Assembly: GCA_964036195.1 (NCBI GenBank)
Contig: OZ038456.1
Span: 15,934,001 to 15,998,000 of the forward strand
From: Sphaerolaimus hirsutus
Lineage: Eukaryota; Nematoda; Chromadorea; Monhysterida; Sphaerolaimidae
DNA length: 64,000 bases
Direction: 5' to 3'
Position 1 is the first letter of the stretch, and every line of letters begins with the position of its first letter. A program made the translations under genes and the position numbers. The notes beneath the pieces were generated by a model that worked only from the letters and a program-made list of their open reading frames with translations, was not told the DNA's origin and made no database searches. This document shows positions 1 through 60,000 of the stretch, piece after piece.

Positions 1-83
1 CAGTTTCGATGGTGTGCCCCTGGCCGATCCCGAACTGCGCACTGAAGCCGGTGAAGCCAGACGTGCGGCTGGCGTGTAGATTT
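1..83 (-). CDS. Exon e64: Ser/Gly/Pro-rich linker (runs off window)
   Basis: Acceptor GTCATTTTAG, entry phase 1. Reads EIYTPAARLASPASVRSSGS, then ARGTPSKL to the edge. Low complexity, following the fifth post-kinase Ig. The frame is set by phase only and no donor or stop lies in the window. Confidence 0.6.
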
Positions 84-36000: not shown

Positions 36001-39000
36001 TAAAAATGTACTTTTTGAGAAGAAAAAAATATGAAAGTTGCAAAAAATGGTGGCTAAAATTTTCAGTACTAATTCAATCATTAGCTGTTTTGAAACTTTC
36101 TGCTAGCAAGTGCACAATTTTATACACAAATTAACATTTGTGTAAGTTTTCATAGGTTTATTTTTGGTATTCTTGTTTCCATTTCCATAACCATGTGATG
36201 TTATTGTAATTTTTTAAATTGTCATATACATACGCTGACTTATTTATTGTGGACATTACATTACTCATTTTATTTATTGTGGACACAGATATAGATCATG
36301 TATCTAACTTTACAATTTTGTATAGTGATATTTATGTGATCACTGTACTTTTATATGGCTAAAGATTGTTTTGCACTCCCCACTTATCTATATCTGATTA
36401 TCAGTCCAGTGCGTAGCAACAGCTCACCGGAATTTCCAACGCACAACATAATTGTATCAAGCAGTTTTGGCGCGACACAAGTTTGTCGCGCAGGTAGTGA
36501 TGGAATGGCGCCACAGTGCTGGCACCATTTGAGGTTATTGATGTGTTCCATCACCAGCATAAAGCATTGTCTCCTGCACAACAAATCTCTGTTGCGCAAA
36601 AAACTGCGCAACAAAATATGTGTAGTGCACGAGTGGTGCCATGGCACAATACACTGGCGCCCTTAAATTGCGCCAGCGCCACGTCGCCATTCCATTACTA
36701 CCTGCGCAACAAAATTGTGTTGCGCAAAAACTGCGCGACACAATTGTGTTGTGCGTTGGAAGTTATTCCGACCCCGTAGCAACTACTGTGAAAATAATAC
36801 TGTATGTGATGCACAGCACTGGGAGAGAAAGATTTCAAGGTTGACTCACAGATTCACCACCTTGAAGTGTAATTGTGTTGGGACTCCCATCACTCATAAC
36901 AGTTGTAACCACAGCATAGGTACCTAATGATTTGAGGTTTTGAACATTATCTGGGACTGGCATGGGTACATGCACTTGCTGCTGTTCTAAGCTTGTCATT
37001 CCCTCTTGTGATTTTCTTCTTAGTGGTGGACCTCGTTTTGCTGACTGAAATTGAGTGTATGTTAATGCTGTTGAGACTGAAATTGAGTGTATTTGAATGC
37101 TGTTGAAACACAAGGATCATACATATCTCACCTGTGTCTGTGGGGTATCGGTATCAGACGAGCTAAGTTCTTGTTCAGGCATTTTGTGTGCCCTCTTTCT
37201 TATTGTATCCAGTCGCTTTGCAGCATGACCATTTGCTTTCTTTTTTGTTTTCCCCTGCATGCATAAACTCAAATAATACTAATTATACTTAAATAAATCC
37301 CCTGGGGAATTATTGTTGTCATACTTTTTGAGGGGAGGGGAGGAATATTTTAGGGGGATAATTTTTTCATCAAAATTTTCAAGCATGTTTCTATGAATTC
37401 ATTCAATAAAATATGCGTTACTAAGATATGACATGCTATTTTTGTTCTCAATACACCAAAAACGTTTATTATTTGTCAAAAGGATAAATACTTTTAGGAA
37501 GGAATTATTTTTCCGTGACTCATAATATTGGCGGGGGGGGGGGATTATTCAAATAAACATGGTACCCGTCATGACAATTATATTCAAATATTTATATGTT
37601 GGGTATTATCAAGCCTCAAAACTAACTTGTATGTCAATTTCATCAGATTCTGGATGCAACAATTCAACACCACTATCCATTGATTGCTGCATCAAAGGAA
37701 TACCATGCATCATTTGGGATGATGTTGGCAATGCTGCAAGCTTATCATCATGGTCAGATTCACACTCTTCCATGATTCGACTGCTACGTTTCACTTTAGT
37801 TGCCTGCAATTATTCACTCATGGTGCAGGGTTAGGCATGGAATAGAAAACATGAAAAAGCATTCAACCTTTTTAGGAAGATGGCCATGTTCATGATCACT
37901 TGCACTTGAATCTTCAGAGCCCTCATCATCTGCTGAGGCAGATGTAACATCTAAATCATCTTTCATACCACTTGTTTTCTTGGGCCTCATTTTTGGTTCG
38001 GCCTCGGAATCAATATCACTACTTAAGTCTGTTTTGGCAAGTTTTTTAGTTGACACACTTTGTGTGCTTGTAGCAGCTCTCTCCTTCTTTGTATCACTTG
38101 ACACAGATCCTATTTGTTTAGTTGTTTCTTTCTGTTGTTCAGCTGTTGCACCTGTATATTTTAAATGATAATTATTTTAAACTGTTTTTTTTTGCCAGTC
38201 ATTATGAGTCCATTTATCTTATTGACTCAAAAAGAATGCAAAGATAATAGTCCCATGAATACATTTAATGGAGGATTAAGAGTACATTTATCAGTTACAA
38301 AGTTGCTTTCATGCTTTAAAATACTTGCAAAACTTAAAGATTACACTCTATGCACATTTTGTATTCTGCTTCTACCTGGTGCATTCTGTAATTACTTGGC
38401 CAGTGTTTAAAGCCACACAATCCTTTATTTTGACAATTATAGTAACATTTATTATATAGTTTATTTAGTTTTTATATTCATAACAGTAAAATTCAGAAAA
38501 GCAAAAACGTTGCTCTATTGTTTTCACACAAGTGGAACAGAAGAGTTCAGTCACTGTTCATGTTACTGCATTTTTTCAATTTTTCCATACAATGGTGATG
38601 TTACCCACATGTACTCTCTGTCCACGTACTTTGACAACGGATTTATTCACCTTTTTTTCAGAGACACTTGTGGGTTTTACATAAAATCAGGAAATTTATG
38701 TATAGGAATTCAATGCACTGTTAACATTGCTTAGATAATATACTGAAATAACTAGTACACTGGCTCAGTGCTTTCAAAATGCACCTTCAAAAAAATATTC
38801 TCACATTATATACACTTTGTGCAGTATTTACTTTGTGCAATTACAACTCCTTCCATGTTTCTTCTAATGCTGGCTTTATGGAGTTAACCATTCTATTTTT
38901 CATGTCTTCACAAGGGTTGAACAAATTTTATATTTTTATCAGCCACACAAAATGAGTTTAATTAAAACAGATTTTTTGAAAATTGCATATACTTTGCTCC

Positions 39001-42000
39001 AAAATCATATTTAGTAAGGGCCATTTGAATTGATAGCCATTGTACTGACCATCATCTGTTGGCATATAGTTATTTATAGTGCCACACAGTTCATCTGTCT
39101 ACCCAATTTATCCTTATGAAAATTTGTGGCAGTGAGCTTTTTAAGAAAGTAAGTTATGCTGTGATAAAAATTTTGAAATGGCCACCACAACCCACATTCA
39201 TCAGAGTGTAACACAATTAGATGTTTCACATTGTTCCTAGATCAGTCTGTTAGAAGAAACATGGTTCTGCTATATAATTATTACCTGATTCCACATGCAG
39301 AGAATCCTGATGTTGTTCTCTTTCACCTCTATCTTGGTGGGTGTGCAATACCTGCGTGCTAGACTTTTTAGTAGTGGATAATTGTGGCTGTGTTGCAAGT
39401 GCATCACCACTAAAATCAGGCTTTGTGGTGCTGGGTGACACTTTCACAACAGTTAAGTTTCTAATTTCATCAATGTCGTCAGAAATAAGACTATTTGCTT
39501 TTTCAGCACCTCCAACATCTACCTCAAATTTATCACTTGACTCAATACTTTTTGAAGTATCTTGTACTGGTTTTGCCACAACTGGTTTCTCTCTCTCGAC
39601 CAATTTCTGTAAAATAAATTTACTCGCTACATCACCAAATTGTAAAATCCATTTTTCCTCAAAACACCCCCATTTATTTTTTTCAGTACTAATTTTGAGT
39701 TGATATTTTGAAGGGACTTACTCACACCAATTTTTTTTCAGATTTCATGAAATTAATAGTGTGGAATACTCTTTTATATACCCAAAACTGCTAACATGTC
39801 CCAAAATTGGAATTCATAGTGCAGGATATTATTTTACGTACCCAGTACTGCTAATGTGACCAAATGAGAAATATTGGCACATATCAACATTACATTGCTA
39901 TGCAAACTAGCATACATGTAGCTGTGACACAAACCGGCACCAATAAACAGATCATGTACATTGCATAAATGATGTACATCATTCCAGAAAGGTGTATTTC
40001 ATGATATACTTATTTTCCCTCAACTCACTGAGACCTGGAGGTATTTCACAGAAGGGAGGGGGGGTATTTTTGAGGAAATACGGTTGATGGTATCAAACCA
40101 TCCTTGACTATAAGTGGTACATCTATAACCTTGGTTGAGTCATCATCCAATGTCACTGGTTTTGCATCTGTTACCACAGATGTTTCATCTTTCCTTGATG
40201 ATGGTTGTTCTGTTTTCTCAGCTGTTGGCAATTTCACTTTCAGCTTATCAGCATCTGGTTCCATTGTTTCACTTTGCATCATTGCAGCACCAGGTTCTTC
40301 TGCACCACCATCTGTCTTTGTGGTAGGTGGTTTTGAACCATCCTTTGCTGCTGGCTTTGCATCTTTCACTTTAGATGTGTCATCTTTCTTTGATGCTGGT
40401 TTTACAGTTTTCTCAGCTGTTGGCAATTTCACTTTCAGCTTATCAGCATCTGGTTCCAATGTTTCACTTTTCATCACTGCAGCACCAGTCCCTTCTGCAC
40501 CACTATCTATTTTTGTGCTAGGTGGCTTCGAACCATCCCTTGCTGCTGGCTTTGCATCTTTCACTTTAGATGTATCATCTTTCTTTGATGCTGGTTTTAC
40601 AGTTATCTCAGCTGTTGGCAATTTCACTTTCAGCTTATCAGCATCTGGTTCCAATGTTTCACTTTGCATCATTGCAGCACCAGGTTCTTCTGCACCACCA
40701 TCTGTCTTTGTGGTAGGTGGTTTTGAACCATCCTTTGCTGCTGGCTTTGCATCTTTCACTTTAGATGTGTCATCTTTCTTTGATGCTGGTTTTACAGTTT
40801 TCTCAGCTGTTGGCAATTTCACTTTCAGCTTATCAGCATCTGGTTCCATTGTTTCACTTTGAATCATTGCAGCACCAGGTCCTTCTGCTCCACCATCTAT
40901 TTTTGTGCTAGGTGGCTTTGAACCATCCTTTGTTGCTGGCTTAGCATCTTTCACTTTAGATGTATCATCTTCTTTTGATGTTGGTTTTTCTGTTGTCTCA
41001 GCTGTTGGCAATTTCACTTTCAGCTTATCAGCATCTGGTTCCATTGTTTCACTTTGCATCATTGCAGCACCAGGTTCTTCTGCACCACCATCTGTCTTTG
41101 TGGTAGGTGGTTTTGAACCATCCTTTGCTGCTGGCTTTGCATCTTTCACTTTAGATGTATCATCTTTCTTTGATGCTGGTTTTACAGTTTTCTCAGCTGT
41201 TGGCAATTTCACTTTCAGCTTATCAGCATCTGGTTCCAATGTTTCACTTTTCATCACTGCAGCACCAGTCTCTTCTGCACCACCATCTATTTTTGTGCTA
41301 GGTGGCTTCGAACCATCCTTTGTTGCTGGCTGAGCATCTTTCACTTTAGTTGTATCATGGTCCTTTGATGCTGGTTTTTCTGTTGTCTCAGCTGTTGGCA
41401 ATTTCACTTTCAGCTTATCAGCATCTGGTTCCAATGTTTCACTTTTCATCACTGCATCACCAGTCTCTTCTGCACCACCATCTATTTTTGTGGTAGGTGG
41501 TTTTGAACCATCCTTTGCTGCTTGCTTTGCATCTTTCACTTTAGATGTATCATCTTTCTTTGATGCTGGTTTTACAGTTTTCTCAGCTGTTGGCAATTTC
41601 ACTTTCAGCTTATCAGCATCTGGTTCCATTGTTTCACTTTGCATCATTGCAGCACCAGGTTCTTCTGCACCAGCATCTATTTTTGTGCTAGGTGGCTTCG
41701 AACCATCCTTTGCTGCTGGCTTTGCATCTTTCACTTTACTTGTATCATCTTCCTTTGATGCTGGTTTTACAGTTTTCTCAGCTGTTGGCAATTTCACTTT
41801 CAGCTTATCAGCATCTGGTTCCATTGTTTCACTTTGCATCATTGCAGCACCAGTTTCTTCTGCACCACCATCTGTCTTTGTGGTAGGTGGTTTTGAACCA
41901 TCCTTTGCTGCTGGCTTTGCATCTTTCACTTTAGATGTATCATCTTTCTTTGATGCTGGTTTTACAGTTTTCTCAGCTGTTGGCAATTTCACTTTCAGCT

Positions 42001-45000
42001 TATCAGCATCTGGTTCCAATGTTTCACTTTTCATCACTGCAGCACCAGTCTCTTCTGCACCATCATCTATTTTTGTGCTAGGTGGCTTCGAACCATCCTT
42101 TGTTGCTGGCTGAGCATCTTTCACTTTAGTTGTATCATGGTCCTTTGATGCTGGTTTTTCTGTTGTCTCAGCTGTTGGCAATTTCACTTTCAGCTTATCA
42201 GCATCTGGTTCCATTGTTTCACTTTGCATCATTGCAGCACCAGGTTCTTCTGCACCACCATCTGTCTTTGTGGTAGGTGGTTTTGAACCATCCTTTGCTG
42301 CTTGCTTTGCATCTTTCACTTTAGATGTATCATCTTTCTTTGATGCTGGTTTTACAGTTTTCTCAGCTGTTGGCAATTTCACTTTCAGCTTATCAGCATC
42401 TGGTTCCATTGTTTCACTTTGCATCATTGCAGCACCAGGTTCTTCTGCACCAGCATCTATTTTGGTGCTAGGTGGCTTCGAACCATCCTTTGCTGCTGGC
42501 TTTGCATCTTTCACTTTACTTGTATCATCTTCCTTTGATGCTGGTTTTACAGTTTTCTCAGTTGTTGGCAATTTCACTTTCAGCTTATCAGCATCTGGTT
42601 CCATTGTTTCACTTTGCATAATTGCAGCACCAGGTTCTTCTGCACCACCATCTATTTTTGTGCTAGGTGGCTTTGAACCATCCTTTGTTGCTGGCTTAGC
42701 ATCTTTCACTTTAGATGTATCATCTTCCTTTGATGCTGGTTTTTCTGTTGTCTCAACTGTTGGCAATTTCACTTTCAGCTTATCAGCATCTGGTTCCACT
42801 GTTTCACTTTGAATCATTGCAGCACCAGGTCCTTCTGCTCCATCATCTATTTTTGTGCTAGGTGGCTTTGAACCATCCTTTGTTGCTGGCTTAGCATCTT
42901 TCACTTTAGATGTATCATCTTCTTTTGATGTTGGTTTTTCTGTTGTCTCAGCTGTTGGCAATTTCACTTTCAGCTTATCAGCATCTGGTTCCATTGTTTC
43001 ACTTTGCATCATTGCAGCACCAGGTTCTTCTGCACCACCATCTGTCTTTGTGGTAGGTGGTTTTGAACCATCCTTTTCTGCTGGCTTTGCATCTTTCACT
43101 TTAGATGTATCATCTTTCTTTGATGCTGGTTTTACAGTTTTCTCAGCTGTTGGCAATTTCACTTTCAGCTTATCAGCATCTGGTTCCAATGTTTCACTTT
43201 TCATCACTGCAGCACCAGTCTCTTCTGCACCACCATCTATTTTTGTGCTAGGTGGCTTCGAACCATCCTTTGTTGCTGGCTGAGCATCTTTCACTTTAGT
43301 TGTATTATGGTCCTTTGATGCTGGTTTTTCTGTTGTCTCAGCTGTTGGCAATTTCACTTTCAGCTTATCAGCATCTGGTTCCATTGTTTCACTTTGCATC
43401 ATTGCAGCAACAGGTTCTTCTGCACCAGCATCTATTTTTGTGCTAGGTGGCTTCGAACCATCCTTTGCTGCTGGCTTTGCATCTTTCACTTTACTTGTAT
43501 CATCTTCCTTTGATGCTGGTTTTACAGTTTTCTCAGCTGTTGGCAATTTCACTTTCAGCTTATCAGCATCTGGTTCCATTGTTTCACTTTGCATAATTGC
43601 AGCACCAGGTTCTTCTGCACCACCATCTATTTTTGTGCTAGGTGGCTTTGAACCATCCTTTGTTGCTGGCTTAGCATCTTTCACTTTAGATGTATCATCT
43701 TCCTTTGATGCTGGTTTTTTTGTTGTCTCAGCTGTTGGCAATTTCACTTTCAGCTTATCAGCATCTGGTTCCATTGTTTCACTTTGAATCGTTGCAGCAC
43801 CAGGTCCTTCTGCTCCATCATCTATTTTTGTGCTAGGTGGCTTTGAACCATCCTTTGTTGCTGGCTTAGCATCTTTCACTTTAGATGTATCATCTTCCTT
43901 TGATGCTGGTTTTTCTGTTGTCTCAGCTGTTGGCAATTTCACTTTCAGCTTATCAGCATCTGGTTCCATTGTTTCACTTTGCATCATTGCAGCACCAGGT
44001 TCTTCTGCACCACCATCTGTCTTTGTGGTAGGTGGTTTTGAACCATCCTTTTCTGCTGGCTTTGCATCTTTCACTTTAGATGTATCATCTTTCTTTGATG
44101 CTGGTTTTACAGTTTTCTCAGCTGTTGGCAATTTCACTTTCAGCTTATCAGCATCTGGTTCCAATGTTTCACTTTTCATCACTGCAGCACCAGTCTCTTC
44201 TGCACCACCATCTATTTTTGTGCTAGGTGGCTTCGAACCATCCTTTGTTGCTGGCTGAGCATCTTTCACTTTAGTTGTATCATGGTCCTTTGATGCTGGT
44301 TTTTCTGTTGTCTCAGCTGTTGGCAATTTCACTTTCAGCTTATCAGCATCTGGTTCCATTGTTTCACTTTGCATCATTGCAGCACCAGGTTCTTCTGCAC
44401 CAGCATCTATTTTTGTGCTAGGTGGCTTCGAACCATCCTTTGCTGCTGGCTTTGCATCTTTCACTTTACTTGTATCATCTTCCTTTGATGCTGGTTTTAC
44501 AGTTTTCTCAGCTGTTGGCAATTTCACTTTCAGCTTATCAGCATCTGGTTCCATTGTTTCACTGTGCATAATTGCAGCACCAGGTTCTTCTGCACCACCA
44601 TCTATTTTTGTGCTAGGTGGCTTTGAACCATCCTTTGTTGCTGGCTTAGCATCTTTCACTTTAGATGTATCATCTTCCTTTGATGCTGGTTTTTCTGTTG
44701 TCTCAGCTGTTGGCAATTTCACTTTCAGCTTATCAGCATCTGGTTCCATTGTTTCACTTTGAATCATTGCAGCACCAGGTCCTTCTGCTCCATCATCTAT
44801 TTTTGTGCTAGGTGGCTTTGAACCATCCTTTGTTGCTGGCTTAGCATCTTTCACTTTAGATGTATCATCTTCTTTTGATGTTGGTTTTTCTGTTGTCTCA
44901 GCTGTTGGCAATTTCACTTTCAGCTTATCAGCATCTGGTTCCATTGTTTCACTTTGCATCATTGCAGCACCAGGTTCTTCTGCACCACCATCTGTCTTTG

Positions 45001-48000
45001 TGGTAGGTGGTTTTGAACCATCCTTTTCTGCTGGCTTTGCATCTTTCACTTTAGATGTATCATCTTTCTTTGATGCTGGTTTTACAGTTTTCTCAGCTGT
45101 TGGCAATTTCACTTTCAGCTTATCAGCATCTGGTTCCAATGTTTCACTTTTCATCACTGCAGCACCAGTCTCTTCTGCACCACCATCTATTTTTGTGCTA
45201 AGTGGCTTCGAACCATCCTTTGTTGCTGGCTGAGCATCTTTCACTTTAGTTGTATCATGGTCCTTTGATGCTGGTTTTTCTGTTGTCTCAGCTGTTGGCA
45301 ATTTCACTTTCAGCTTATCAGCATCTGGTTCCATTGTTTCACTTTGCATCATTGCAGCACCAGGTTCTTCTGCACCACCATCTGTCTTTGTGGTAGGTGG
45401 TTTTGAACCATCCTTTGCTGCTTGCTTTGCATCTTTCACTTTAGATGTATCATCTTTCTTTGATGCTGGTTTTACAGTTTTCTCAGCTGTTGGCAATTTC
45501 ACTTTCAGCTTATCAGCATCTGGTTCCATTGTTTCACTTTGCATAATTGCAGCACCAGGTTCTTCTGCACCACCATCTATTTTTGTGCTAGGTGGCTTCG
45601 AACCATCCTTTGTTGCTGGCTGAGCATCTTTCACTTTAGTTGTATCATCTTCCTTTGATGCTGGTTTTTTTGTTGTCTCAGCTGTTGGCAATTTCACTTT
45701 CAGCTTATCAGCATATGGTTCCAATGTTTCACTTTTCATCACTGCAGCACCAGTCTCTTCTGCACCACCATCTATTTTTGTGCTAGGTGGCTTCGAACCA
45801 TCCTTTGTTGCTGGCTGAGCATCTTTCACTTTAGTTGTATCATCTTCCTTTGATGCTGGTTTTTTTGTTGTCTCAGCTGTTGGCAATTTCACTTTCAGCT
45901 TATCAGCATCTGGTTCCATTGTTTCACTTTGCATCATTGCAGCACCAGGTTCTTCTGCACCACCATCTGTCTTTGTGGTAGGTGGTTTTGAACCATCCTT
46001 TGCTGCTTGCTTTGCATCTTTCACTTTAGATGTATCATCTTTCTTTGATGCTGGTTTTACAGTTTTCTCAGCTGTTGGCAATTTCACTTTCAGCTTATCA
46101 GCATCTGGTTCCAATGTTTCACTTTTCATCACTGCAGCACCAGTCTCTTCTGCACCACCATCTATTTTTGTGCTAAGTGGCTTCGAACCATCCTTTGTTG
46201 CTGGCTGAGCATCTTTCACTTTAGTTGTATCATGGTCCTTTGATGCTGGTTTTTCTGTTGTCTCAGCTGTTGGCAATTTCACTTTCAGCTTATCAGCATT
46301 TGGTTCCATTGTTTCACTTTGCATCATTGCAGCACCAGGTTCTTCTGCACCACCATCTGTCTTTGTGGTAGGTGGTTTTGAACCATCCTTTGCTGCTTGC
46401 TTTGCATCTTTCACTTTAGATGTATCATCTTTCTTTGATGCTGGTTTTACAGTTTTCTCAGCTGTTGGCAATTTCACTTTCAGCTTATCAGCATCTGGTT
46501 CCATTGTTTCACTTTGCATAATTGCAGCACCAGGTTCTTCTGCACCACCATCTATTTTTGTGCTAGGTGGCTTCGAACCATCCTTTGTTGCTGGCTGAGC
46601 ATCTTTCACTTTAGTTGTATCATCTTCCTTTGATGCTGGTTTTTTTGTTGTCTCAGCTGTTGGCAATTTCACTTTCAGCTTATCAGCATATGGTTCCAAT
46701 GTTTCACTTTTCATCACTGCAGCACCAGTCTCTTCTGCACCACCATCTATTTTTGTGCTAGGTGGCTTCGAACCATCCTTTGTTGCTGGCTGAGCATCTT
46801 TCACTTTAGTTGTATCATGGTCCTTTGATGCTGGTTTTTCTGTTGTCTCAGCTGTTGGCAATTTCACTTTCAGCTTATCAGCATCTGGTTCCATTGTTTC
46901 ACTTTGCATCATTGCAGCACCAGGTTCTTCTGCACCACCATCTGTCTTTGTGGTAGGTGGTTTTGAACCATCCTTTGCTGCTTGCTTTGCATCTTTCACT
47001 TTAGATGTATCATCTTTCTTTGATGCTGGTTTTACAGTTTTCTCAGCTGTTGGCAATTTCACTTTCAGCTTATCAGCATCTGGTTCCATTGTTTCACTTT
47101 GCATAATTGCAGCACCAGGTTCTTCTGCACCACCATCTATTTTTGTGCTAGGTGGCTTCGAACCATCCTTTGTTGCTGGCTGAGCATCTTTCACTTTAGT
47201 TGTATCATCTTCCTTTGATGCTGGTTTTTTTGTTGTCTCAGCTGTTGGCAATTTCACTTTCAGCTTATCAGCATATGGTTCCAATGTTTCACTTTTCATC
47301 ACTGCAGCACCAGTCTCTTCTGCACCACCATCTATTTTTGTGCTAGGTGGCTTCGAACCATCCTTTGTTGCTGGCTGAGCATCTTTCACTTTAGTTGTAT
47401 CATCTTCCTTTGATGCTGGTTTTTCTGTTGTCTCAGCTGTTGGCAATTTCACTTTCAGCTTATCAGCATCTGGTTCCATTGTTCCACTTTGCATCATTGC
47501 AGCACCAGGTTCTTCTGCACCACCATCTGTCTTTGTGGTAGGTGGTTTTGAACCATCCTTTGCTGCTTGCTTTGCATCTTTCACTTTAGATGTATCATCT
47601 TTCTTTGATGCTGGTTTTACAGGTTTCTCAGCTGTTGGCAATTTCACTTTCAGCTTATCAGCATCTGGTTCCATTGTTTCACTTTGCATCATTGCAGCAC
47701 CAGTTTCTTCTGCACCACCATCTGTCTTTGTGGTAGGTGGTTTTGAACCATCCTTTGCTGCTGGCTTTGCATCTTTCACTTTAGATGTATCATCTTTCTT
47801 TGATGCTGGTTTTACAGTTTTTTCAGCTGTTGGCAATTTCACTTTAAGCTTATCAGCATCTGGTTCCATTGTTTCACTTTGCATCATTGCAGCACCAGGT
47901 TCTTCTGCACCACCATCTATTTTTGTGCTAGGTGGCTTCAAACCATCCTTTGTTGCTGGCTGAGCATCTTTCACTTTGGATGTATCATCTTCCTTTGATG

Positions 48001-51000
48001 CTGGTTTTTCTGTTTTCTCAGGTGTTGGCAATTTCACTTTCAGCTTATCAGCATCTGGTTCCATTGTTTCACTTTGCATCATTGCAGCACCAGGTTCTTC
48101 TGCACCACCATTTGTCTTTGTGGTAGGTGGTTTTGAACCATCCTTTGCTGCTGGCTTTGCATCTTTCACTTTAGATGTATCATCTTTCTTTGATGCTGGT
48201 TTTACAGTTTTCTCAGCTGTTGGCAATTTCACTTTCAGCTTATCAGCATCTGGTTCCATTGTTTCACTTTGCATCATTGCAGCACCAGGTTCTTCTGCAC
48301 CACCATCTGTCTTTGTGGTAGGTGGTTTTGAACCATCCTTTGCTGCTTGCTTTGCATCTTTCACTTTAGATGTATCATCTTTCTTTGATGCTGGTTTTAC
48401 AGTTTTCTCAGCTGTTGGCAATTTCACTTTCAGCTTATCAGCATCTGGTTCCATTGTTTCACTTTGCATCATTGCAGCACCAGGTTCTTCTGCACCACCA
48501 TCTGTCTTTGTGGTAGGTGGCTTCGAACCATCCTTTGCTGCTGGCTTTGCATCTTTCACTTTAGATGTATCATCTTTCTTTGATGCTGGTTTTACAGTTT
48601 TCTCAGCTGTTGGCAATTTCACTTTCAGCTTATCAGCATCTGGTTCCAATGTTTCACTTTTCATCACTGCAGCACCAGTCTCTTCTGCACCACCATCTAT
48701 TTTTGTGCTAGGTGGCTTCGAACCATCCTTTGTTGCTGGCTGAGCATCTTTCACTTTGGATCTATAATCTTCCTTTGATGCTGGTTTTTCTGTTGTCTCA
48801 GCTGTTGGCAATTTCACTTTCAGCTTATCAGCATCTGGTTCCATTGTTTCACTTTGAATCATTGCAGCACCAGTTCCTTCTGCTCCACCATCTATTTTTG
48901 TGCTTGGTGGCTTTGAACCATCCTTTGTTGCTGGCTCATCTTTCACTTTGGATGTATCATCTTCCTTTGATGCTGGTTTTTCTGTTGTCTTAGCTGTTGG
49001 CAATTTCACTTTCAGCTTATCAGCATCTGGGTCCATTGTTTCACTTTGCATCATTGCAGCACCAGGTTCTTCTGCACCACCATCTGTCTTTGTGGTAGGT
49101 GGTTTTGAACCATCCTTTGCTGCTGGCTTTGCATCTTTCACTTTAGATGTATCATCTTTCTTTGATGCTGGTTTTACAGTTTTCTCAGCTGTTGGCAATT
49201 TCACTTTCAGCTTATCAGCATCTGGTTCCATTGTTTCACTTTGCATCATTGCAGCACCAGGTTCTTCTGCACCACCATCTGTCTTTGTGGTAGGTGGTTT
49301 TGAACCATCCTTTGCTGTGGGCTTTGCATCTTTCACTTTAGATGTATCATCTTTCTTTGATGCTGGTTTTACAGTTTTCTCAGCTGTTGGCAATTTCACT
49401 TTCAGCTTATCAGCATCTGGTTCCATTGTTTCACTTTGCATCATTGCAGCACCATGTTCTTCTGCACCACCATCTGTCTTTGTGGTAGGTGGTTTTGAAC
49501 CATCCTTTGCTGCTGGCTTTGCATCTTTCACTTTAGATGTATCATCTTTCTTTGATGCTGGTTTTACAGTTTTCTCAGCTGTTGGCAATTTCACTTTCAG
49601 CTTATCAGCATCTGGTTCCATTGTTTCACTTTGCATCATTGCATCACCAGGTTCTTCTGCACCACCATCTATTTTTTTGCTAGGTGGCTTTGAACCATCA
49701 TTTGTTGCTGGCTGAGCATCTTTCACTTTAGATGTATCATCTTGCTTTGATGCTGGTTTTTCTGTTGTCTCAGCTGTTGGCAATTTCACTTTCAGCTTAT
49801 CAGCATCTGGTTCCATCGTTTCACTTTGCATCATTGCAGCACCAGGTTCTTCTGCACCACCATCTGTCTTTGCAGTAGGTAGTTTCGAACCATCCTTTGC
49901 TGCTGCCTTAGCATCTTTCACTTTAGATGTATCATCTTTCTTTGATGCTGGTTTTTCTATTGTCTCAGCTGTTGGCAATTTCACTTTCAGCTTATCAGCA
50001 TCTGGTTCCAATGTTTCACTTTTCATCACTGCAGCACCAGTCTCTTCTGCACCACCATCTGTTTTTGTGGTAGGTGGCCTTGAACCATCCTTTGTTGCTG
50101 GCTTAGCATCTTTCACTTTAGATGTATCATCTTCCTTTGATGTAAGTTTTTCTGTTGTCTCAGCTGTTGGCAATTTCACTTTCAGCTTATCAGCATCTGG
50201 TTCCATTGTTTCACTTTGAATCATTGCAGCACCAGGTCCTTCTGCTCCACTATCTATTTTTGTGCTAGGTGGCTTCGAACCATCCTTTGTTGCTGGCTTA
50301 GCATCTTTCACTTGAGATGTATCATCTTCCTTTGATGTTGGTTTTTCTGTTGTCTCAGCTGTTGGCAATTTCACTTTCAGCTTATCAGCATCTGGTTCCA
50401 ATGTTTCACTTTTCATCACTGCAGCACCAGTCTCTTCTGCACCACCATCTGTTTTTGTGGTAGGTGGCCTTGAACCATCCTTTGTTGCTGGCTTAGCATC
50501 TTTCACTTTAGATGTATCATCTTCCTTTGATGTTAGTTTTTCTGTTGTCTCAGCTGTTGGCAATTTCACTTTCAGCTTATCAGCATCTGGTTCCATTGTT
50601 TCACTTTGAATCATTGCAGCACCAGGTTCTTCTGCACCACCATCTGTCTTTGCAGTAGGTAGTTTCAAACCATCCTTTGCTGCTGCCTTAGCATCTTTCA
50701 CTTTAGATGTATAATCTTTCTTTGATGCTGGTTTTACAGTTTTCTCAGCTGTTGGGAATTTCACTTTCAGCTTATCAGCATCTGGTTCCATTGTTTCACT
50801 TTGCATCATTGCAGCACCAGGTTCTTCTGCACCACCATCTGTCTTTGCAGTAGGTAGTTTCGAACCATCCTTTGCTGCTGCCTTAGCATCTTTCACTTTA
50901 GATGTATCATCTTTATTTGATGCTGGTTTTTCTGTTGTCTCAGCTGTTGGCAACTTCACTTTCAGCTTATCACCATCTGGTTCCATTGTTTCACTTTTCA

Positions 51001-54000
51001 TCACTGCAGCACCAGCCTCTTCTGCACCACCATCTGTTTTTGTGGTAGGTGGCTTCAAACCATCCTTTGTTGCTGGCTTAGCATCTTCCACTTTAGATGT
51101 ATCATCTTCCTTTGATGTTGGTTTTTCTGTTGTCTCAGCTGTTGGCAATTTCAGTTTCAGCTTATCAGCATCTGGTTCCATTGTTTCACTTTGAATCATT
51201 GCAGCACCAGGTCCTTCTGCTCCACCATCTATTTTTGTGGTAGGTGGTTCTGAACCATCCTTTGCTGCTGGCTTTGCATCTTTCACTTTAGATGTATCAT
51301 CTTCCTTTGATGCTGGTTTTACAGTTTTCTCAGCTGTTGGCAATTTCACTTTCAGCTTATCAGCATCTGGTTCCAATGTTTCACTTTTCATCACTGCAGC
51401 ACCAGTCTCTTCTGCACCACCATCTGTTTTTGTGGTAGGTGGCTTTGAACCATCCTCTGTTGCTGGCTTAGCAACTTTTACTTTAGATGTATAATCTTTC
51501 TTTGATGCTGGTTTCACAGTTTTCTCAGCTGTTGGCAATTTCACTTTCAGCTTATCAGCATCTGGTTCCAATGTTTCACTTTTCATCACTGCAGCACCAG
51601 TCTCTTCTGCACCACCATCTGTTTTTGTGGTAGGTGGCTTTGAACCATCCTTTGCTGCTGGCTTTGCATCTTTCACTTTAGATGTTTCATCTTCATTTGA
51701 TGCTGGTTTTTCTGTTGTCTCAGCTGTTGGCAATTTCACTTTCAGCTTATCAGCATCTGGTTCCATTGTTTCACTTTGCATCATAGCAGCACCAGTCTCT
51801 TCTGCACCGCCATCTGTTTTTGTGGTAGGTGGCTTTGAACCATCCTCTGTTGCTGGCTTAGCAACTTTCACTTTAGATGTATAATCTTTCTTTGATGCTG
51901 ATTTTACAGTTTTCTCAGCTGTTGGGAATTTCACTTTCAGCTTATCAGCATCTGGTTCCGTTGTTTCACTTTGCATCATTGCAGCACCAGGTTCTTCTGC
52001 ACCACCATCTATTTTTGTGGTAGGTGGTTCTGAACCATCCTTTGCTGCTGCCTTAGCATCTTTCACTTTAGATGTATCATCTTTCTTTGATGCTGGTTTT
52101 TCTGTTGTCTCAGCTGTTGGCAATTTCACTTTCAGCTTATCAGCATCTGGTTCCAATGTTTCACTTTTCATCACTGCAGCACCAGCCTCTTTTGCACCAC
52201 CATCTGTTTTTGTGGTAGGTGGCTTTGAACCGTCCTCTGTTGCTGGCTTAGCAACTTTCACTTTAGATGTATAATCTTTCTTTGATGCTGGTTTTACAGT
52301 TTTCTCAGCTGTTGGGAATTTCACTTTCAGCTTATCAGCATCTGGTTCCATTGTTTCACTTTGCATCATTGCAGCACCAGGTTCTTCTGCACCACCATCT
52401 ATTTTTGTGCTAGGTGGCTTCGAACCATCCTTTGTTGCTGGCTGAGCATCTTTCACTTTTGATGTATCATCTTCCTTTGATGCTGGTTTTTCTGTTGTCT
52501 CAGCTGTTGGCAATTTCACTTTCAGCTTATCAGCATCTGGTTCCATTGTTTCACTTTGCATCATTGCAGCACCAGGTTCTTCTGCACCACCATCTGTCTT
52601 TGCAGTAGGTAGTTTCGAACCATCCTTTGCTGCTGCCTTAGCATCTTTCACTTTAGATGTATCATCTTTCTTTGATGCTGGTTTTTCTGTTGTCTCAGCT
52701 GTTGGCAATTTCACTTTCAGCTTATCAGCATCTGGTTCCAATGTTTCACTTTTCATCACTGCAGCACCAGCCTCTTCTGCACCACCATCTGTTTTTGTGG
52801 TAGGTGGCTTTGAACCGTCCTCTGTTGCTGGCTTAGCAACTTTCACTTTAGATGTATAATCTTTCTTTGATGCTGGTTTTACAGTTTTCTCAGCTGTTGG
52901 GAATTTCACTTTCAGCTTATCAGCATCTGGTTCCATTGTTTCACTTTGCATCATTGCAGCACCAGGTTCTCCTGCACCACCATCTATTTTTGTGCTAGGT
53001 GGCCTCGAACCATCCTTTGTTACTGGCTGAGCATCTTTCACTTTAGATGTATAATCGTCCTTTGATGCTGGTTTTTCTGTTGTCTCAGCTGTTGGCAATT
53101 TCACTTTCAGCTTATCACCATCTGGTTCCATTGTTTCACTTTTCATCACTGCAGCACCAGCCTCTTCTGCACCACCATCTGTTTTTGTGGTAGGTGGCTT
53201 CGAACCATCCTTTGTTGCTGGCTTAGCATCTTTCACTTCAGATGTATCATCTTCCTTTGATGTTGGTTTTTCTGTTGTCTCAGCTGTTGGCAATTTCAGT
53301 TTCAGCTTATCAGCATCTGGTTCCATTGTTTCACTTTGAATCATTGCAGCACCAGGTCCTTCTGCTCCACCATCTATTTGTGTGGTAGGTGGTTCTGAAC
53401 CATCCTTTGCTGCTGGCTTTGCATCTTTCACTTTAGATGTATCATCTTCCTTTGATGCTGGTTTTACAGTTTTCTCAGCTGTTGGCAATTTCACTTTTAG
53501 CTTATCAGCATCTGGTTCCAATGTTTCACTTTTCATCACTGCAGCACCAGTCTCTTCTGCACCACCATCTGTTTTTGTGGTAGGTGGCTTTGAACCATCC
53601 TCTGTTGCTGGCTTAGCAACTTTCACTTTAGATGTATAATCTTTCTTTGATGCTGGTTTTACAGTTTTCTCAGCTGTTGGGAATTTCACATTCAGCTTAT
53701 CAGCATCTGGTTCCAATGTTTCACTTTTCATCACTGCAGCACCAGTCTCTTCTGCACCACCGTCTGTTTTTGTGGTAGGTGGCTTTGAACCATCCTTTGC
53801 TGCTGGCTTTGCATCTTTCACTTTAGATGTATCATCTTCCTTTGATGCTGGTTTTTCTGTTGTCTCAGCTGTTGGCAATTTCACTTTCAGCTTATCAGCA
53901 TCTGGTTCCATTGTTTCACTTTGCATCATTGCAGCACCAGTCTCTTCTGCACCGCCATCTGTTTTTGTGGTAGGTGGCTTTGAACCATCCTCTGTTGCTG

Positions 54001-57000
54001 GCTTAGCAACTTTCACTTTAGATGTATAATCTTTCTTTGATGCTGGTTTTACAGTTTTCTCAGCTGTTGGGAATTTCACTTTCAGCTTATCAGCATCTGG
54101 TTCCGTTGTTTCACTTTGCATCATTGCAGCACCAGGTTCTTCTGCACCACCATCTATTTTTGTGGTAGGTGGTTCTGAACCATCCTTTGCTGCTGCCTTA
54201 GCATCTTTCACTTTAGATGTATCATCTTTCTTTGATGCTGGTTTTTCTGTTGTCTCAGCTGTTGGCAATTTCACTTTCAGCTTATCAGCATCTGGTTCCA
54301 TTGTTTCACTTTGCATCATTGCAGCACCAGTCTCTTCTGCACCGCCATCTGTTTTTGTGGTAGGTGGCTTTGAACCATCCTCTGTTGCTGGCTTAGCAAC
54401 TTTCACTTTAGATGTATAATCTTTCTTTGATGCTGGTTTTACAGTTTTCTCAGCTGTTGGGAATTTCACTTTCAGCTTATCAGCATCTGGTTCCGTTGTT
54501 TCACTTTGCATCATTGCAGCACCAGGTTCTTCTGCACCACCATCTATTTTTGTGGTAGGTGGTTCTGAACCATCCTTTGCTGCTGCCTTAGCATCTTTCA
54601 CTTTAGATGTATCATCTTTCTTTGATGCTGGTTTTTCTGTTGTCTCAGCTGTTGGCAATTTCAGTTTCAGCTTATCAGCATCTGGTTCCATTGTTTCACT
54701 TTGAATCATTGCAGCACCAGGTCCTTCTGCTCCACCATCTATTTTTGTGGTAGGTGGTTCTGAACCATCCTTTGCTGCTGGCTTAGCATCTTTCACTTCA
54801 GATGTATCATCTTCCTTTGATGTTGGTTTTTCTGTTGTCTCAGCTGTTGGCAATTTCAGTTTCAGCTTATCAGCATCTGGTTCCATTGTTTCACTTTGAA
54901 TCATTGCAGCACCAGGTCCTTCTGCTCCACCATCTATTTGTGTGGTAGGTGGTTCTGAACCATCCTTTGCTGCTGGCTTTGCATCTTTCACTTTAGATGT
55001 ATCATCTTCCTTTGATGCTGGTTTTACAGTTTTCTCAGCTGTTGGCAATTTCACTTTTAGCTTATCAGCATCTGGTTCCAATGTTTCACTTTTCATCACT
55101 GCAGCACCAGTCTCTTCTGCACCACCATCTGTTTTTGTGGTAGGTGGCTTTGAACCATCCTCTGTTGCTGGCTTAGCAACTTTCACTTTAGATGTATAAT
55201 CTTTCTTTGATGCTGGTTTTACAGTTTTCTCAGCTGTTGGGAATTTCACATTCAGCTTATCAGCATCTGGTTCCAATGTTTCACTTTTCATCACTGCAGC
55301 ACCAGTCTCTTCTGCACCACCATCTGTTTTTGTGGTAGGTGGCTTTGAACCATCCTTTGCTGCTGGCTTTGCATCTTTCACTTTAGATGTATCATCTTCC
55401 TTTGATGCTGGTTTTTCTGTTGTCTCAGCTGTTGGCAATTTCACTTTCAGCTTATCAGCATCTGGTTCCATTGTTTCACTTTGCATCATTGCAGCACCAG
55501 TCTCTTCTGCACCGCCATCTGTTTTTGTGGTAGGTGGCTTTGAACCATCCTCTGTTGCTGGCTTAGCAACTTTCACTTTAGATGTATAATCTTTCTTTGA
55601 TGCTGGTTTTACAGTTTTCTCAGCTGTTGGGAATTTCACTTTCAGCTTATCAGCATCTGGTTCCGTTGTTTCACTTTGCATCATTGCAGCACCAGGTTCT
55701 TCTGCACCACCATCTATTTTTGTGGTAGGTGGTTCTGAACCATCCTTTGCTGCTGCCTTAGCATCTTTCACTTTAGATGTATCATCTTTCTTTGATGCTG
55801 GTTTTTCTGTTGTCTCAGCTGTTGGCAATTTCACTTTCAGCTTATCAGCATCTGGTTCCATTGTTTCACTTTGCATCATTGCAGCACCAGTCTCTTCTGC
55901 ACCGCCATCTGTTTTTGTGGTAGGTGGCTTTGAACCATCCTCTGTTGCTGGCTTAGCAACTTTCACTTTAGATGTATAATCTTTCTTTGATGCTGGTTTT
56001 ACAGTTTTCTCAGCTGTTGGGAATTTCACTTTCAGCTTATCAGCATCTGGTTCCGTTGTTTCACTTTGCATCATTGCAGCACCAGGTTCTTCTGCACCAC
56101 CATCTATTTTTGTGGTAGGTGGTTCTGAACCATCCTTTGCTGCTGCCTTAGCATCTTTCACTTTAGATGTATCATCTTTCTTTGATGCTGGTTTTTCTGT
56201 TGTCTCAGCTGTTGGCAATTTCAGTTTCAGCTTATCAGCATCTGGTTCCATTGTTTCACTTTGAATCATTGCAGCACCAGGTCCTTCTGCTCCACCATCT
56301 ATTTTTGTGGTAGGTGGTTCTGAACCATCCTTTGCTGCTGGCTTTGCATCTTTCACTTTAGATGTATCATCTTCCTTTGATGCTGGTTTTACAGTTTTCT
56401 CAGCTGTTGGCAATTTCACTTTCAGCTTATCAGCATCTGGTTCCAATGTTTCACTTTTCATCACTGCAGCACCAGTCTCTTCTGCACCACCATCTGTTTT
56501 TGTGGTAGGTGGCTTTGAACCATCCTCTGTTGCTGGCTTAGCAACTTTCACTTTAGATGTATAATCTTTCTTTGATGCTGGTTTTACAGTTTTCTCAGCT
56601 GTTGGGAATTTCACTTTCAGCTTATCAGCATCTGGTTCCGTTGTTTCACTTTGCATCATTGCAGCACCAGGTTCTTCTGCACCACCATCTATTTTTGTGC
56701 TAGGTGGCTTCGAACCATCCTTTGTTGCTGGCTGAGCATCTTTCACTTTAGATGTATCATCTTTCTTTGATGCTGGTTTTTCTGTTGTCTCAGCTGTTGG
56801 CAATTTCACTTTCAGCTTATCAGCATCTGGTTCCATTGTTTCACTTTTCATCACTGCAGCACCAGCCTCTTCTGCACCACCATCTGTTTTTGTGGTAGGT
56901 GGCTTTGAACCATCCCCTGTTGCTGGCTTAGCAACTTTCACTATAGATGTATAATCTTTCTTTGATGCTGGTTTTACAGTTTTCTCAGCTGTTGGGAATT

Positions 57001-60000
57001 TCACTTTCAGCTTATCAGCATCTGGTTCCGTTGTTTCACTTTGCATCATTGCAGCACCAGGTTCTTCTGCACCACCATCTATTTTTGTGCTAGGTGGCTT
57101 CGAACCATTCTTTGTTGCTGGCTTAGCATCTTTCACTTTAGATGTATCATCTTCCTTTGATGTTGGTTTTTCTGTTGTCTCAGCTGTTGGCAATTTCAGT
57201 TTCAGCTTATCAGCATCTGGTTCTATTGTTTCACTTTGAATCATTGCAGCACCAGGTCCTTCTGCTCCACCATCTATTTTTGTGGTAGGTGGCTTCAAAC
57301 CATCCTTTGCTGCTGGCTTTGCATCTTTCACTTTAGATGTATCATCTTCCTTTGATGCTGGTTTTTCTGTTGTCTCAGCTGTTGGCAATTTCACTTTCAG
57401 CTTATCAGCATCTGGTTCCATTGTTTCACTTTTCATCACTGCAGCACCAGCCTCTTCTGCACCACCATCTGTTTTTGTGGTAGGTGGCTTCGAACCATCC
57501 TTTGTTGCTGGCTTAGCATCTTTCACTTTAGATGTATCATCTTCCTTTGATGTTGGTTTTTCTGTTGTCTCAGCTGTTGGCAATTTCAGTTTCAGCTTAT
57601 CAGCATCTGGTTCTATTGTTTCACTTTGAATCATTTCAGCACCAGGTCCTTCTGCTCCACCATCTATTTTTGTGGTAGGTGGCTTCGAACCATCCTTTGC
57701 TGCTGGCTTTGCATCTTTCATTTTAGATGCATTATCTTCCTTTGATGCTGGTTTTTCTGTTGTCTCAGCTGTTGGCAATTTCACTTTCAGCTTATCAGCA
57801 TCTGGTTCCATTGATTCACTTTGCATCATTGCAGCACCAGTCTCTTCTGCACCGCCATCTATTTTTGTGGTAGGTGGCTTTGAACCATCCCCTGTTGCTG
57901 GCTTAGCAACTTTCACTTTAGATGTATAATCTTTCTTTGATGCTGGTTTTACAGTTTTCTCAGCTGTTGGGAATTTCACTTTCAGCTTATCAGCATCTGG
58001 TTCCATTGTTTCACTTTGCATCATTGCAGCACCAGGTTCTTCTGCACCACCATCTATTTTTGTGCTAGGTGGCTTCAAACCATCCTTTGTTGCTGGCTGA
58101 GCATCTTTCACTTTAGATGTATCATCTTCCTTTGATGCTGGTTTTTCTAATGTCTCAGCTGTTGGCAATTTCACTTTCAGCTTATCAGCATCTGGTTGCA
58201 ATGTTTCACTTTTCATCACTGCAGCACCAGTCTCTTCTGCACCACCATCTGTTTTTGTGGTAGGTGGCTTTGAACCATCCTCTGTTGCTGGCTTAGCAAC
58301 TTTCACTTTAGATGTATAATCTTTCTTTGATGATGGTTTTACAGTTTTCTCAGTTGTTGGGAATTTCACTTTCAGCTTATCAGCATCTGGTTCCATTGTT
58401 TCACTTTGCATCATTGCAGCACCAGGTTCTTCTGCACCACCATCTATTTTTGTGGTAGGTGGTTCTGAACCATCCTTTGCAGCTGGCTTTGCACCCTTCA
58501 CTTTAGATGTATCATCTTCCTTTGATGCTGGTTTTTCTGTTGTCTCAGCTGTTGGCAATTTCACTCTCAGCTTATCAGCATCTGGTTCCATTGTTTCACT
58601 TTGCATCATTGCAGCACCAGTCTCTTCTGCACCACCATCTGTTTTTGTGGTAGGTGGCTTTGAACCATCCTCTGTTGCTGGCTTAGCAACTTTCACTTTA
58701 GATGTATAATCTTTCTTTGATGCTGGTTTTACAGTTTTCTCAGCTGTTGGGAATTTCACTTTCAGCTTATCAGCATCTGGTTCCATTGTTTCACTTTGCA
58801 TCATTGCAGCACCAGGTTCTTCTGCACCACCATCTATTTTTGTGCTAGGTGGCTTCGAACCATCCTTTGTTGCTGGCTGAGCATCTTTCACTTTAGATGT
58901 ATCATCTTCGTTTGATGCTGGTTTTTCTAATGTCTCAGCTGTTGGCAATTTCACTTTCAGCTTATCAGCATCTGGTTGCAATGTTTCACTTTTCATCACT
59001 GCAGCACCAGTCTCTTCTGCACCACCATGTGTTGTTGTGGTAGGTGGCTTTGAACCATCCTCTGTTGCTGGCTTAGCAACTTTCACTTTAGATGTATAAT
59101 CTTTCTTTGATGCTGGTTTTACAGTTTTCTCAGCTGTTGGGAATTTCACTTTCAGCTTATCAGCATCTGGTTCCATTGTTTCACTTTGCATCATTGCAGC
59201 ACCAGGTTTTTCTGCACCACCATCTATTTTTGTGGTAGGTAATTCTGAACCATCCTTTGCTGCTGGCTTTGCACCTTTCACTTTAGATGTATCATCTTCC
59301 TTTGATGCTGGTTTTTCTGTTGTCTCAGCTGTTGGCAATTTCACTCTCAGCTTATCAGCATCTGGTTCCATTGTTTCACTTTGCATCATTGCAGCACCAG
59401 TCTCTTCTGCACCACCATCTGTTTTTGTGGTAGGTGGCTTTGAAATATCCTTTGCTGTTGGAAGCACATCTATAACTTGGGTATCAGCTTTTCCTGTTGA
59501 TAGTTTTTCTGATATTCCAGCTTTTGTCAGCTTCACTTTCTCCTTATCAACAATTTCTCCTCTGATTTCACTTTTCATAGTTGTAGAGCTAAGTTCTCCT
59601 TGTGCTGTATCATCAAATTTTGTGGTGGATTGTTTCAAACCATTGTTTTCATTTTGATGGACATTTGTTGGTTTGGATGTATCATCCTTCTTTGATGATG
59701 GTTGCTGTGTTTTGTCATCTTTTGAATCTTTCACTTTCTTTTTATCAGCCTCTGTTCCAAGTACTTCAATGAGTGCAGTTGCAGATCCAGGTTCTTTCTG
59801 CAGTCCATCATCTGACTTTGTGATCAGTGACTTCAAACCATCTTTTGCACCTGGTGGTACATCTGTTGCTTTCAATGTATTATCTTTTTTTGGTGGCACT
59901 TTCTCTGTTTTATCCGCTTCTGGCAATTTCATATCATCAATTTCTATAGATTTTGTTTCTTTAAGCTTTGTCATTTTTGGTTTGATTACACCATCCTGCT

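What the first reader, a model, noticed from the sequence alone, without database searches (positions are those of the whole stretch)
40082..59998. A single 19.9-kb coding exon with about 99 tandem 65-residue repeats
6,639 codons without a stop or intron, phase 0 at both ends, all in one 195-bp repeat. This is longer than the ~17-kb exon usually quoted for human titin, so it is among the largest exons known to me. Unit number would set spring length directly, and it is expected to vary between individuals.
Basis: partly seen in the sequence, partly recalled or inferred. Interest (0 to 1): 0.88.

Follow-up and report, generated by a model that had tools for sequence, protein, structure and literature searches.

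The report
Titin-like gene with giant spring exons
The stretch is real and is one of five giant repeat-filled exons in an invertebrate relative of the muscle protein titin, whose predicted elastic part is about ten times longer than a well-studied fruit-fly spring exon, so it could show how muscles set their stretchiness by repeat number.

Summary
Confirmed. On the minus strand, 40049-60025 is open for 6,659 codons and holds 98.9 head-to-tail copies of a 195-bp (65-residue) unit. It is not alone. With flanks from the same genome, a home-made splice model gives a gene of about 179 exons, 88.7 kb coding and 29,567 residues: Ig-rich N-terminus, repeat exons of 3.8, 18.0, 10.2 and 19.9 kb, SH3 and Ig domains, a fifth repeat exon (3.1 kb), Ig/Fn3, Ig-Ig-Fn3-kinase, and 19 more Ig hits, some partial. 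A closer match to twitchin lies on another contig and no RhoGEF was found near. So this is best read as an I-band titin (Sallimus / I-connectin / TTN-1 kind), not twitchin or obscurin. Four of the arrays are charged, predicted disordered and PEVK-type by a published rule: about 17,000 residues, 6.0 micrometres of contour. The mechanism (entropic spring, unit number setting length) is inferred. The size claim needs tempering: longer exons are reported in human (GRIN2B 27,303 bp; MUC12). No RNA or population data were available. Verdict: a new, extreme variant of a known kind.

The parts
40130..59998 (-). giant exon, 65-residue units (about 99), phase 0 to 0; alternative donor at 40082
40178..59461 (-). 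regular 195-bp tandem array inside the giant exon
60053..60189 (-). predicted 137-bp exon just upstream of the giant exon, with an intron of 54 bp between
60796..64000 (-). in-window part of the next repeat exon (59-residue units); the whole predicted exon runs to 70956, 10,161 bp
23824..26920 (-). repeat exon of 41-residue units (21 copies), 3,097 bp
21240..23147 (-). two further Lys/Glu-rich predicted exons (22506-23147 and 21240-21890) for which no tandem array was reported
35750..36990 (-). SH3 domain split over two exons (first ends at 36850, second starts at 35879; outer limits approximate); the splice model missed these exons
27780..39606 (-). linker exons and Ig domains between the main springs and the 41-residue array
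8526..20722 (-). Ig and Fn3 block: 8 Ig and 8 Fn3 hits, ending Ig-Ig-Fn3 before the kinase
6299..7681 (-). Ser/Thr kinase domain, titin/twitchin type, HLD and DFG motifs present
1..5345 (-). Ig domains after the kinase; the series goes on beyond the window's low end, 19 Ig hits (some partial) in all after the kinase

Best explanation
The tract is one coding exon of an I-band-type titin gene of an invertebrate with the invertebrate mitochondrial code. The gene codes for a protein of very roughly 29,500 residues. Five exons made of tandem units (77, 60-62, 59, 65 and 41 residues) lie between the Ig-rich N-terminus and the Ig/Fn3/kinase/Ig C-terminal part. The 60-62, 59, 65 and 41 arrays (about 17,000 residues) are highly charged, poor in aromatic and Cys residues and predicted disordered. 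Most likely they act as an entropic spring between the Z-disc-bound N-terminus and the thick-filament-bound C-terminus, and the number of units sets the extensible length. Shown here: open frame, repeat structure, domain order, composition, a separate twitchin-like kinase gene. Inferred: expression, filament anchoring, elasticity, length setting.
For: Open frame and array. The open frame scores best of six by codon use learned from the gene's predicted non-repeat exons (9,519 codons) in 5 of 5 repeat exons. No stop among distinct changes in the four arrays tested against 12.5 expected (3.9+4.8+1.5, 2.3). The main periods of all five arrays are multiples of three, with open frames on one strand. 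The 65- and 59-residue units are related, 48% identical. Ig, Fn3, kinase and SH3 domains around it by Pfam; 49 Ig and 9 Fn3 hits with local profiles. 19,991 of 29,567 predicted residues lie in 250-residue windows with over 40% P, E, V, K, the PEVK rule of PMC12063666 (section 18). Charge-hydropathy predicts disorder for 4 of 5 arrays and order for an Ig/Fn3 control. A separate kinase locus scores 397.5 bits to twitchin 1koa against 273.5 for this gene's kinase. Deleting a PEVK exon of about 1,700 residues shortens Drosophila larval sarcomeres (PMC12063666, section 8 and passage).
Against: No RNA, protein or mechanical data. Amino-acid constraint in the 65-residue array is weak: distinct changes give a nonsynonymous/synonymous ratio near neutral (about 1.15; 1.02 for the 59-residue array), although 0.68 and 0.35 in the 60- and 41-residue arrays. 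The 65-residue array only just meets the PEVK rule: 41.2% on average, 5,383 of 6,374 windows over 40%; the 77-residue array fails it, 0 of 1,033. No titin or PPAK family matches stretches of the five arrays. The gene model is home-made, missed at least the SH3 exons, will contain wrong exons, and its ends are not fixed. Structure prediction could not be run.
Confidence: 0.78

Rival explanations
1. The arrays are coding but are not mainly springs: they are long charged, disordered spacers or filament-binding and phosphorylation surfaces.
For: Near-neutral change in the 65- and 59-residue arrays fits a composition-only role. The title of Forbes et al. 2010 on C. elegans TTN-1, seen in reference lists, names filament binding besides elasticity. 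The 77-residue array is neither PEVK-type nor predicted disordered.
Against: Position between Ig-rich N-terminus and Ig/Fn3/kinase part, and PEVK-type composition of four arrays, match the elastic part of known titins. Spacer and spring are not exclusive.
Confidence: 0.15
2. The array is a non-coding tandem satellite in an intron that is open by chance or by youth.
For: Near-neutral nonsynonymous/synonymous ratio; very similar copies, some blocks duplicated recently.
Against: No stop in 6,659 codons while the other five frames of the exon hold 55 to 677; no frame-breaking spacing between units, one unit of 64 residues only; related arrays on the same strand in separate exons; best codon score of six frames; predicted splice sites at both ends.
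Confidence: 0.03
3. The array exists but its copy number is an assembly product (expanded or collapsed).
For: Long arrays of similar units are hard to assemble; no reads were available.
Against: No N run lies in any repeat exon; 77 of 97 full units are distinct and the longest exact repeat in this exon is 1,022 bp, so reads much longer than that should resolve it; the 125 genome matches to the unit all lie in this gene (150 of 159 candidates scored), so no stray copy was seen on another contig.
Confidence: 0.08
4. The gene is an obscurin/UNC-89 or a twitchin instead of an I-band titin.
For: The kinase's best PDB matches are twitchins (288.6 and 273.5 bits) over titin (219); an SH3 domain is present.
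Against: None of 32 RhoGEF matches in the genome lies on this contig between 8.89 and 18.59 Mb (exon-by-exon search); the obscurin kinase scores only 197 bits; a far better twitchin kinase lies elsewhere (397.5 bits); only one kinase was seen in the 274 kb read (148 of 231 candidates scored).
Confidence: 0.04

Closest known systems
C. elegans TTN-1 (Ce-titin)
   Same: I-band titin beside a separate twitchin, with Ig and PEVK-rich regions (PMC12063666 passage); about 2 MDa (PMC9886281 passage). A C-terminal kinase is recalled, not read.
   Different: This gene's predicted protein is larger (about 29,500 residues) and its repeats sit in a few giant exons; the TTN-1 sequence itself was not available for comparison.
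Drosophila Sallimus (Sls, D-titin)
   Same: I-band titin with PEVK exons; loss of exon 32 shortens sarcomeres (PMC12063666). An SH3 domain in Sls is recalled only.
   Different: Sls exon 32 codes about 1,700 PEVK residues against about 17,000 in four arrays here; in insects the kinase is in projectin.
Crayfish I-connectin
   Same: Long invertebrate connectin of giant sarcomeres; its title says up to 3.5 micrometres (reference list and passage). Tandem 68-71-residue repeats are recalled, not read (paper not held).
Lophotrochozoan titins (molluscs, annelids)
   Different: None was available for sequence comparison.
Human titin exon 327 and mucin repeat exons
   Same: Very long exons; mucin exons are tandem-repeat exons that vary in length.
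   Different: Titin's longest exon, 17,106 bp, is shorter; mucins are unrelated in function.

Membership tests
I-band titin (Sls / I-connectin / TTN-1) | Ig-rich N-terminal part before the spring | tested here: met
   19 Ig hits before the repeat exons in the predicted protein
I-band titin (Sls / I-connectin / TTN-1) | PEVK-type region, over 40% P, E, V, K in 250-residue windows (rule read) | tested here: met
   19,991 of 29,567 predicted residues; by exon 5,383 of 6,374 windows (65), 5,711 of 5,759 (60), 3,137 of 3,137 (59), 783 of 783 (41), 0 of 1,033 (77)
I-band titin (Sls / I-connectin / TTN-1) | A second, A-band titin (twitchin/projectin) elsewhere in the genome | tested here: met
   kinase on C3, 397.5 bits to twitchin 1koa; its Ig and Fn3 neighbours were judged by eye only
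I-band titin (Sls / I-connectin / TTN-1) | Protein sits in the I-band, N-terminus at the Z-disc | not testable with these tools
   needs antibodies or tags
I-band titin (Sls / I-connectin / TTN-1) | SEC14 and spectrin-repeat genes upstream (connectitin synteny, PMC12198301 section 12) | tested here: inconclusive
   spectrin repeats on the same strand about 350 kb upstream, but none of 3 SEC14 (PF13716) matches on this contig
I-band titin (Sls / I-connectin / TTN-1) | Tree position among named titins | not tested
   no named titin sequences other than PDB kinases were at hand
Vertebrate titin | Long A-band array of Fn3/Ig super-repeats in the same protein | tested here: not met
   9 Fn3 hits only
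Vertebrate titin | PPAK-type PEVK motif | tested here: not met
   no PPAK or titin family among Pfam matches for stretches of the five arrays
Twitchin / projectin | Kinase closest to twitchin of all in the genome, Ig-Fn3 super-repeats | tested here: not met
   another locus is much closer to twitchin; few Fn3 and giant springs present
Obscurin / UNC-89 | RhoGEF-PH module with SH3, and two kinases (recalled) | tested here: not met
   SH3 present but no RhoGEF match nearby and one kinase in the stretch read

The most novel reading that the evidence does not exclude
The gene encodes the longest elastic segment of any titin: five cassette exons, four of them with equal phases at both ends so that each could be skipped without a frame shift, giving muscles or individuals springs of quantised length up to about 6 micrometres, with repeat number evolving by unequal exchange as a genetic dial for sarcomere length.
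Probability: 0.3. Interest if true: 0.75.

Novelty: new variant of a known kind. Interest (0 to 1): 0.55.

Why it matters
Drosophila experiments show that I-band titin length controls I-band length and affects sarcomere length, and annelid gut muscles with sarcomeres up to 40 micrometres are cited as extremes (PMC12063666). A titin whose spring is about ten times a Drosophila PEVK exon, built of countable units in exons that could be skipped one by one, would let one test directly whether repeat number sets sarcomere length and passive stiffness. It also shows near-neutral change within a giant coding array, and warns that such exons may be missed or broken by gene predictors.

Tried and rejected
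A 21,477-codon 'open frame' in a spectrin match on another contig proved to be a run of N and was dropped. Jellyfish 'connectitin' (PMC12198301, sections 12, 13, 14, 18 and passages read) was considered because of SH3 and kinase; dropped because the mitochondrial piece reads ATA=Met, AGA=Ser, TGA=Trp, AAA=Lys at conserved cox1 positions (which animals use which code is recalled) and because no RhoGEF is near. Chaetognath was considered for the organism; a reading that resembles atp6 in the mitochondrial piece (my reading) speaks against it, since chaetognaths are recalled to lack atp6, and the published genome is 257 Mb (PMC12460157 passages). The idea that this contig carries a SEC14-spectrin-titin cluster was not borne out. 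Purifying selection on the 65-residue array was expected and not found. A first exon prediction with too low a penalty gave 1,002 exons and was discarded. For a stretch of the 60-residue array Pfam listed four families (BTH_I2711-like, RecO_N, DUF5130, DUF6751), three over their cut-offs for the whole protein, but with no stretch that passes on its own; I take these for sums of weak chance matches over repeats. Literature: searches listed no paper that I saw to describe this gene; with the organism unknown that is weak. Fukuzawa 2001 and Forbes 2010 are not held; their content is recalled or known by title and citing passages.
Full report
What was checked. The minus-strand open frame runs 40049-60025, 6,659 codons. 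Tandem Repeats Finder gives 40178-59461, period 195, 98.9 copies, 91% matches, 0% indels. Anchoring on the unit gives 99 units; 97 of 98 spacings are 65 residues and one is 64.

Is it more than chance? Among 121 distinct changes between 97 full units none makes a stop, where 3.9 were expected; for the 59-residue array 49 units, 97 changes, 0 stops, 4.8 expected; for the 41-residue array 21 units, 39 changes, 0 stops, 1.5 expected; for 39 units of 60 residues 51 changes, 0 stops, 2.3 expected, and for 19 units of 62 residues, which may share changes with the former, 40, 0 and 1.7. Units of other lengths were left out, and the 77-residue array was not tested. Expectations assume transitions twice as likely. 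A codon table learned from the gene's predicted non-repeat exons (9,519 codons) gives the open frame the best score of six in 5 of 5 repeat exons. Synonymous codon shares of the array correlate with those exons at r = 0.52.

Surroundings. The window is part of a 28.5-Mb contig of a 348.5-Mb genome with 762 contigs. I fetched flanks and joined 274 kb. Two runs of N occur in it, neither within a repeat exon. On the same strand four more repeat exons appear: 95092-77066 (18,027 bp, 60-62-residue units, about 95 copies), 70956-60796 (10,161 bp, 59-residue units, about 55), 101496-97648 (3,849 bp, 77-residue units, about 7.5) and 26920-23824 (3,097 bp, 41-residue units, about 21) (coordinates above 64000 continue the window's numbering). 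Four of the five have equal phases at both ends, 0/0 or 1/1; the 41-residue exon has 0/1. The 65- and 59-residue units are 48% identical over two units; the 60- and 41-residue units show weaker similarity to these and each other (28-34%); the 77-residue exon shows little (best E 0.003 over 34 residues, to the 41-residue unit); composition correction and low-complexity filter were off, so the weak ones may be composition only. The 125 genome matches to the 65-residue unit all lie in the 65- and 59-residue exons of this gene (150 of 159 candidates were scored).

Gene model. A home-made exon predictor, retrained on its own output, gave 199 exons over the 274 kb; I kept the 179 between window positions 165000 and -22000, limits set from the Ig hits: 88,702 coding bases, 29,567 residues without stop. 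It is approximate: it missed the two SH3 exons that I found by eye, and neither the first nor the last exon is established. Domains found with local profiles built from this region: 49 Ig and 9 Fn3 hits, some partial; 19 Ig before the springs, 3 in the middle, 8 Ig and 8 Fn3 before the kinase with the order Ig-Ig-Fn3-kinase at its end, 19 Ig and one Fn3 after it. Pfam on raw reading frames found I-set, fn3 and Pkinase matches far over the cut-offs and I-set in the middle part, and on the spliced pieces SH3_1 at 26.3 bits against a cut-off of 22.9, and Pkinase at 220.9 bits.

Which family. The kinase matches the twitchins 1kob (288.6 bits) and 1koa (273.5) best in the PDB, then among relatives titin (219) and obscurin (197); MLCK4 and DAPK kinases score between. 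That 1kob is from Aplysia, 1koa from C. elegans and the titin chains from human is recalled. Another locus codes for a kinase with 397.5 bits to 1koa, next to sequence that looks like Ig and Fn3 by eye, so twitchin is most likely a different gene. None of 32 RhoGEF matches lies on this contig between 8.89 and 18.59 Mb, which speaks against obscurin. PMC12063666 (sections 8, 13, 18 and passages seen) states that Ecdysozoa have an I-band and an A-band titin and that in molluscs and annelids there are also two, with mixed features. This gene fits an I-band titin with a kinase.

How it most likely works. By the PEVK rule of that paper (over 40% P, E, V, K in 250 residues), 19,991 of 29,567 residues count. 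By exon, windows over 40% are 5,383 of 6,374 (65-residue units, 41.2% on average), 5,711 of 5,759 (60), 3,137 of 3,137 (59), 783 of 783 (41) and 0 of 1,033 (77). Charge-hydropathy places the 65-, 60-, 59- and 41-residue arrays on the disordered side, and the 77-residue array and an Ig/Fn3 control on the ordered side; W, C, Y and F together make 0 to 1.9% of the first four. Stretches of the 65-, 59- and 41-residue arrays match no Pfam family, nor does the 77-residue array; a stretch of the 60-residue array lists four unrelated families without any stretch passing on its own. Stretches of the 65-, 60- and 59-residue arrays match nothing in the PDB. Four exons give 17,051 residues, 5.97 micrometres at 0.35 nm per residue (the figure per residue is from PMC12063666). 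In Drosophila, loss of about 1,700 PEVK residues shortened Sls by 0.5 and the sarcomere by about 1.5 micrometres. The reading that follows, inferred and not shown, is an entropic spring in a long or highly extensible sarcomere, its length set by unit number and perhaps by exon skipping.

Evolution of the array. Of 97 full units 77 are distinct; 32 of 4,656 pairs are identical. A block of 1,569 bp is duplicated at a distance of 1,560 bp with one mismatch, and one of 2,042 bp at 975 bp with 17. First and second halves are nearly as alike between as within (0.917 against 0.924 and 0.922). This fits repeated unequal exchange. The ratio of nonsynonymous to synonymous distinct changes is near neutral in the 65- and 59-residue arrays (1.15, 1.02) and lower in the 60-, 62- and 41-residue ones (0.68, 0.70, 0.35); counted over all pairs of units it is 0.84, 0.60 and 0.18 for the 65-, 59- and 41-residue arrays. 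Composition and frame seem kept, sequence less so. This weakens claims of a sequence-specific role.

Size in context. The exon exceeds titin's 17,106 bp (PMC9845391 passage), as does its 18,027-bp neighbour. It is not the largest known: PMC13345508 (preprint, passages) cites 27,303 bp for a GRIN2B exon and longer for MUC12, whose longest predicted protein is 23,080 residues. What is unusual is the total: five such exons in one titin gene.

Verdict. Observation confirmed; interpretation partly supported; an extreme new variant of the known I-band titins; a coding tract is very likely on sequence grounds, spring function probable, population variation untested.

Noticed in passing
window coordinates 77066-95092 (beyond the window, same contig and strand): A second giant repeat exon, 18,027 bp, 60-62-residue units, also fitted by a 546-bp higher-order period, also longer than human titin's longest exon.
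   Followed up: partly
window coordinates 97648-101496: A 3.8-kb exon of 77-residue units whose composition is not PEVK-like and is not predicted disordered; it differs from the other four arrays and its role is unclear.
   Followed up: partly
window coordinates about 136000-142000: Repeated pairs of predicted exons of about 152 and 181 bp (tandem periods 464 and 477 bp with introns) in the N-terminal part: whole exon pairs seem duplicated.
   Followed up: no
C3:21157001-21161000 (L026): Twitchin-like locus: a kinase with 397.5 bits to twitchin 1koa, preceded by Ig- and Fn3-like sequence.
   Followed up: partly
C16:7178001-7183000 (L027): A third titin-family-like kinase with HLD and DFG motifs, perhaps obscurin type (a guess, not tested).
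   Followed up: no
C9:16448109-16482936, minus strand: A cluster of spectrin repeats about 350 kb upstream of the gene on the same strand; could be the zormin/CCDC141-like neighbour of titin or an unrelated gene.
   Followed up: partly
window 15000-33000 and flanks, several places: Introns carry many reading-frame pieces like 'GYFE..ISRKYGI', apparently a short repeated, perhaps MITE-like element; a similar piece lies just past the 3' end of the giant exon. Seen by eye only.
   Followed up: no
L025 (contig C762, 4,335 bp held): Mitochondrial fragment, 80.8% A+T, with cox1 and readings that look to me like nad1, nad2 and atp6; no tRNA found by ARAGORN (bacterial code).
   Followed up: partly
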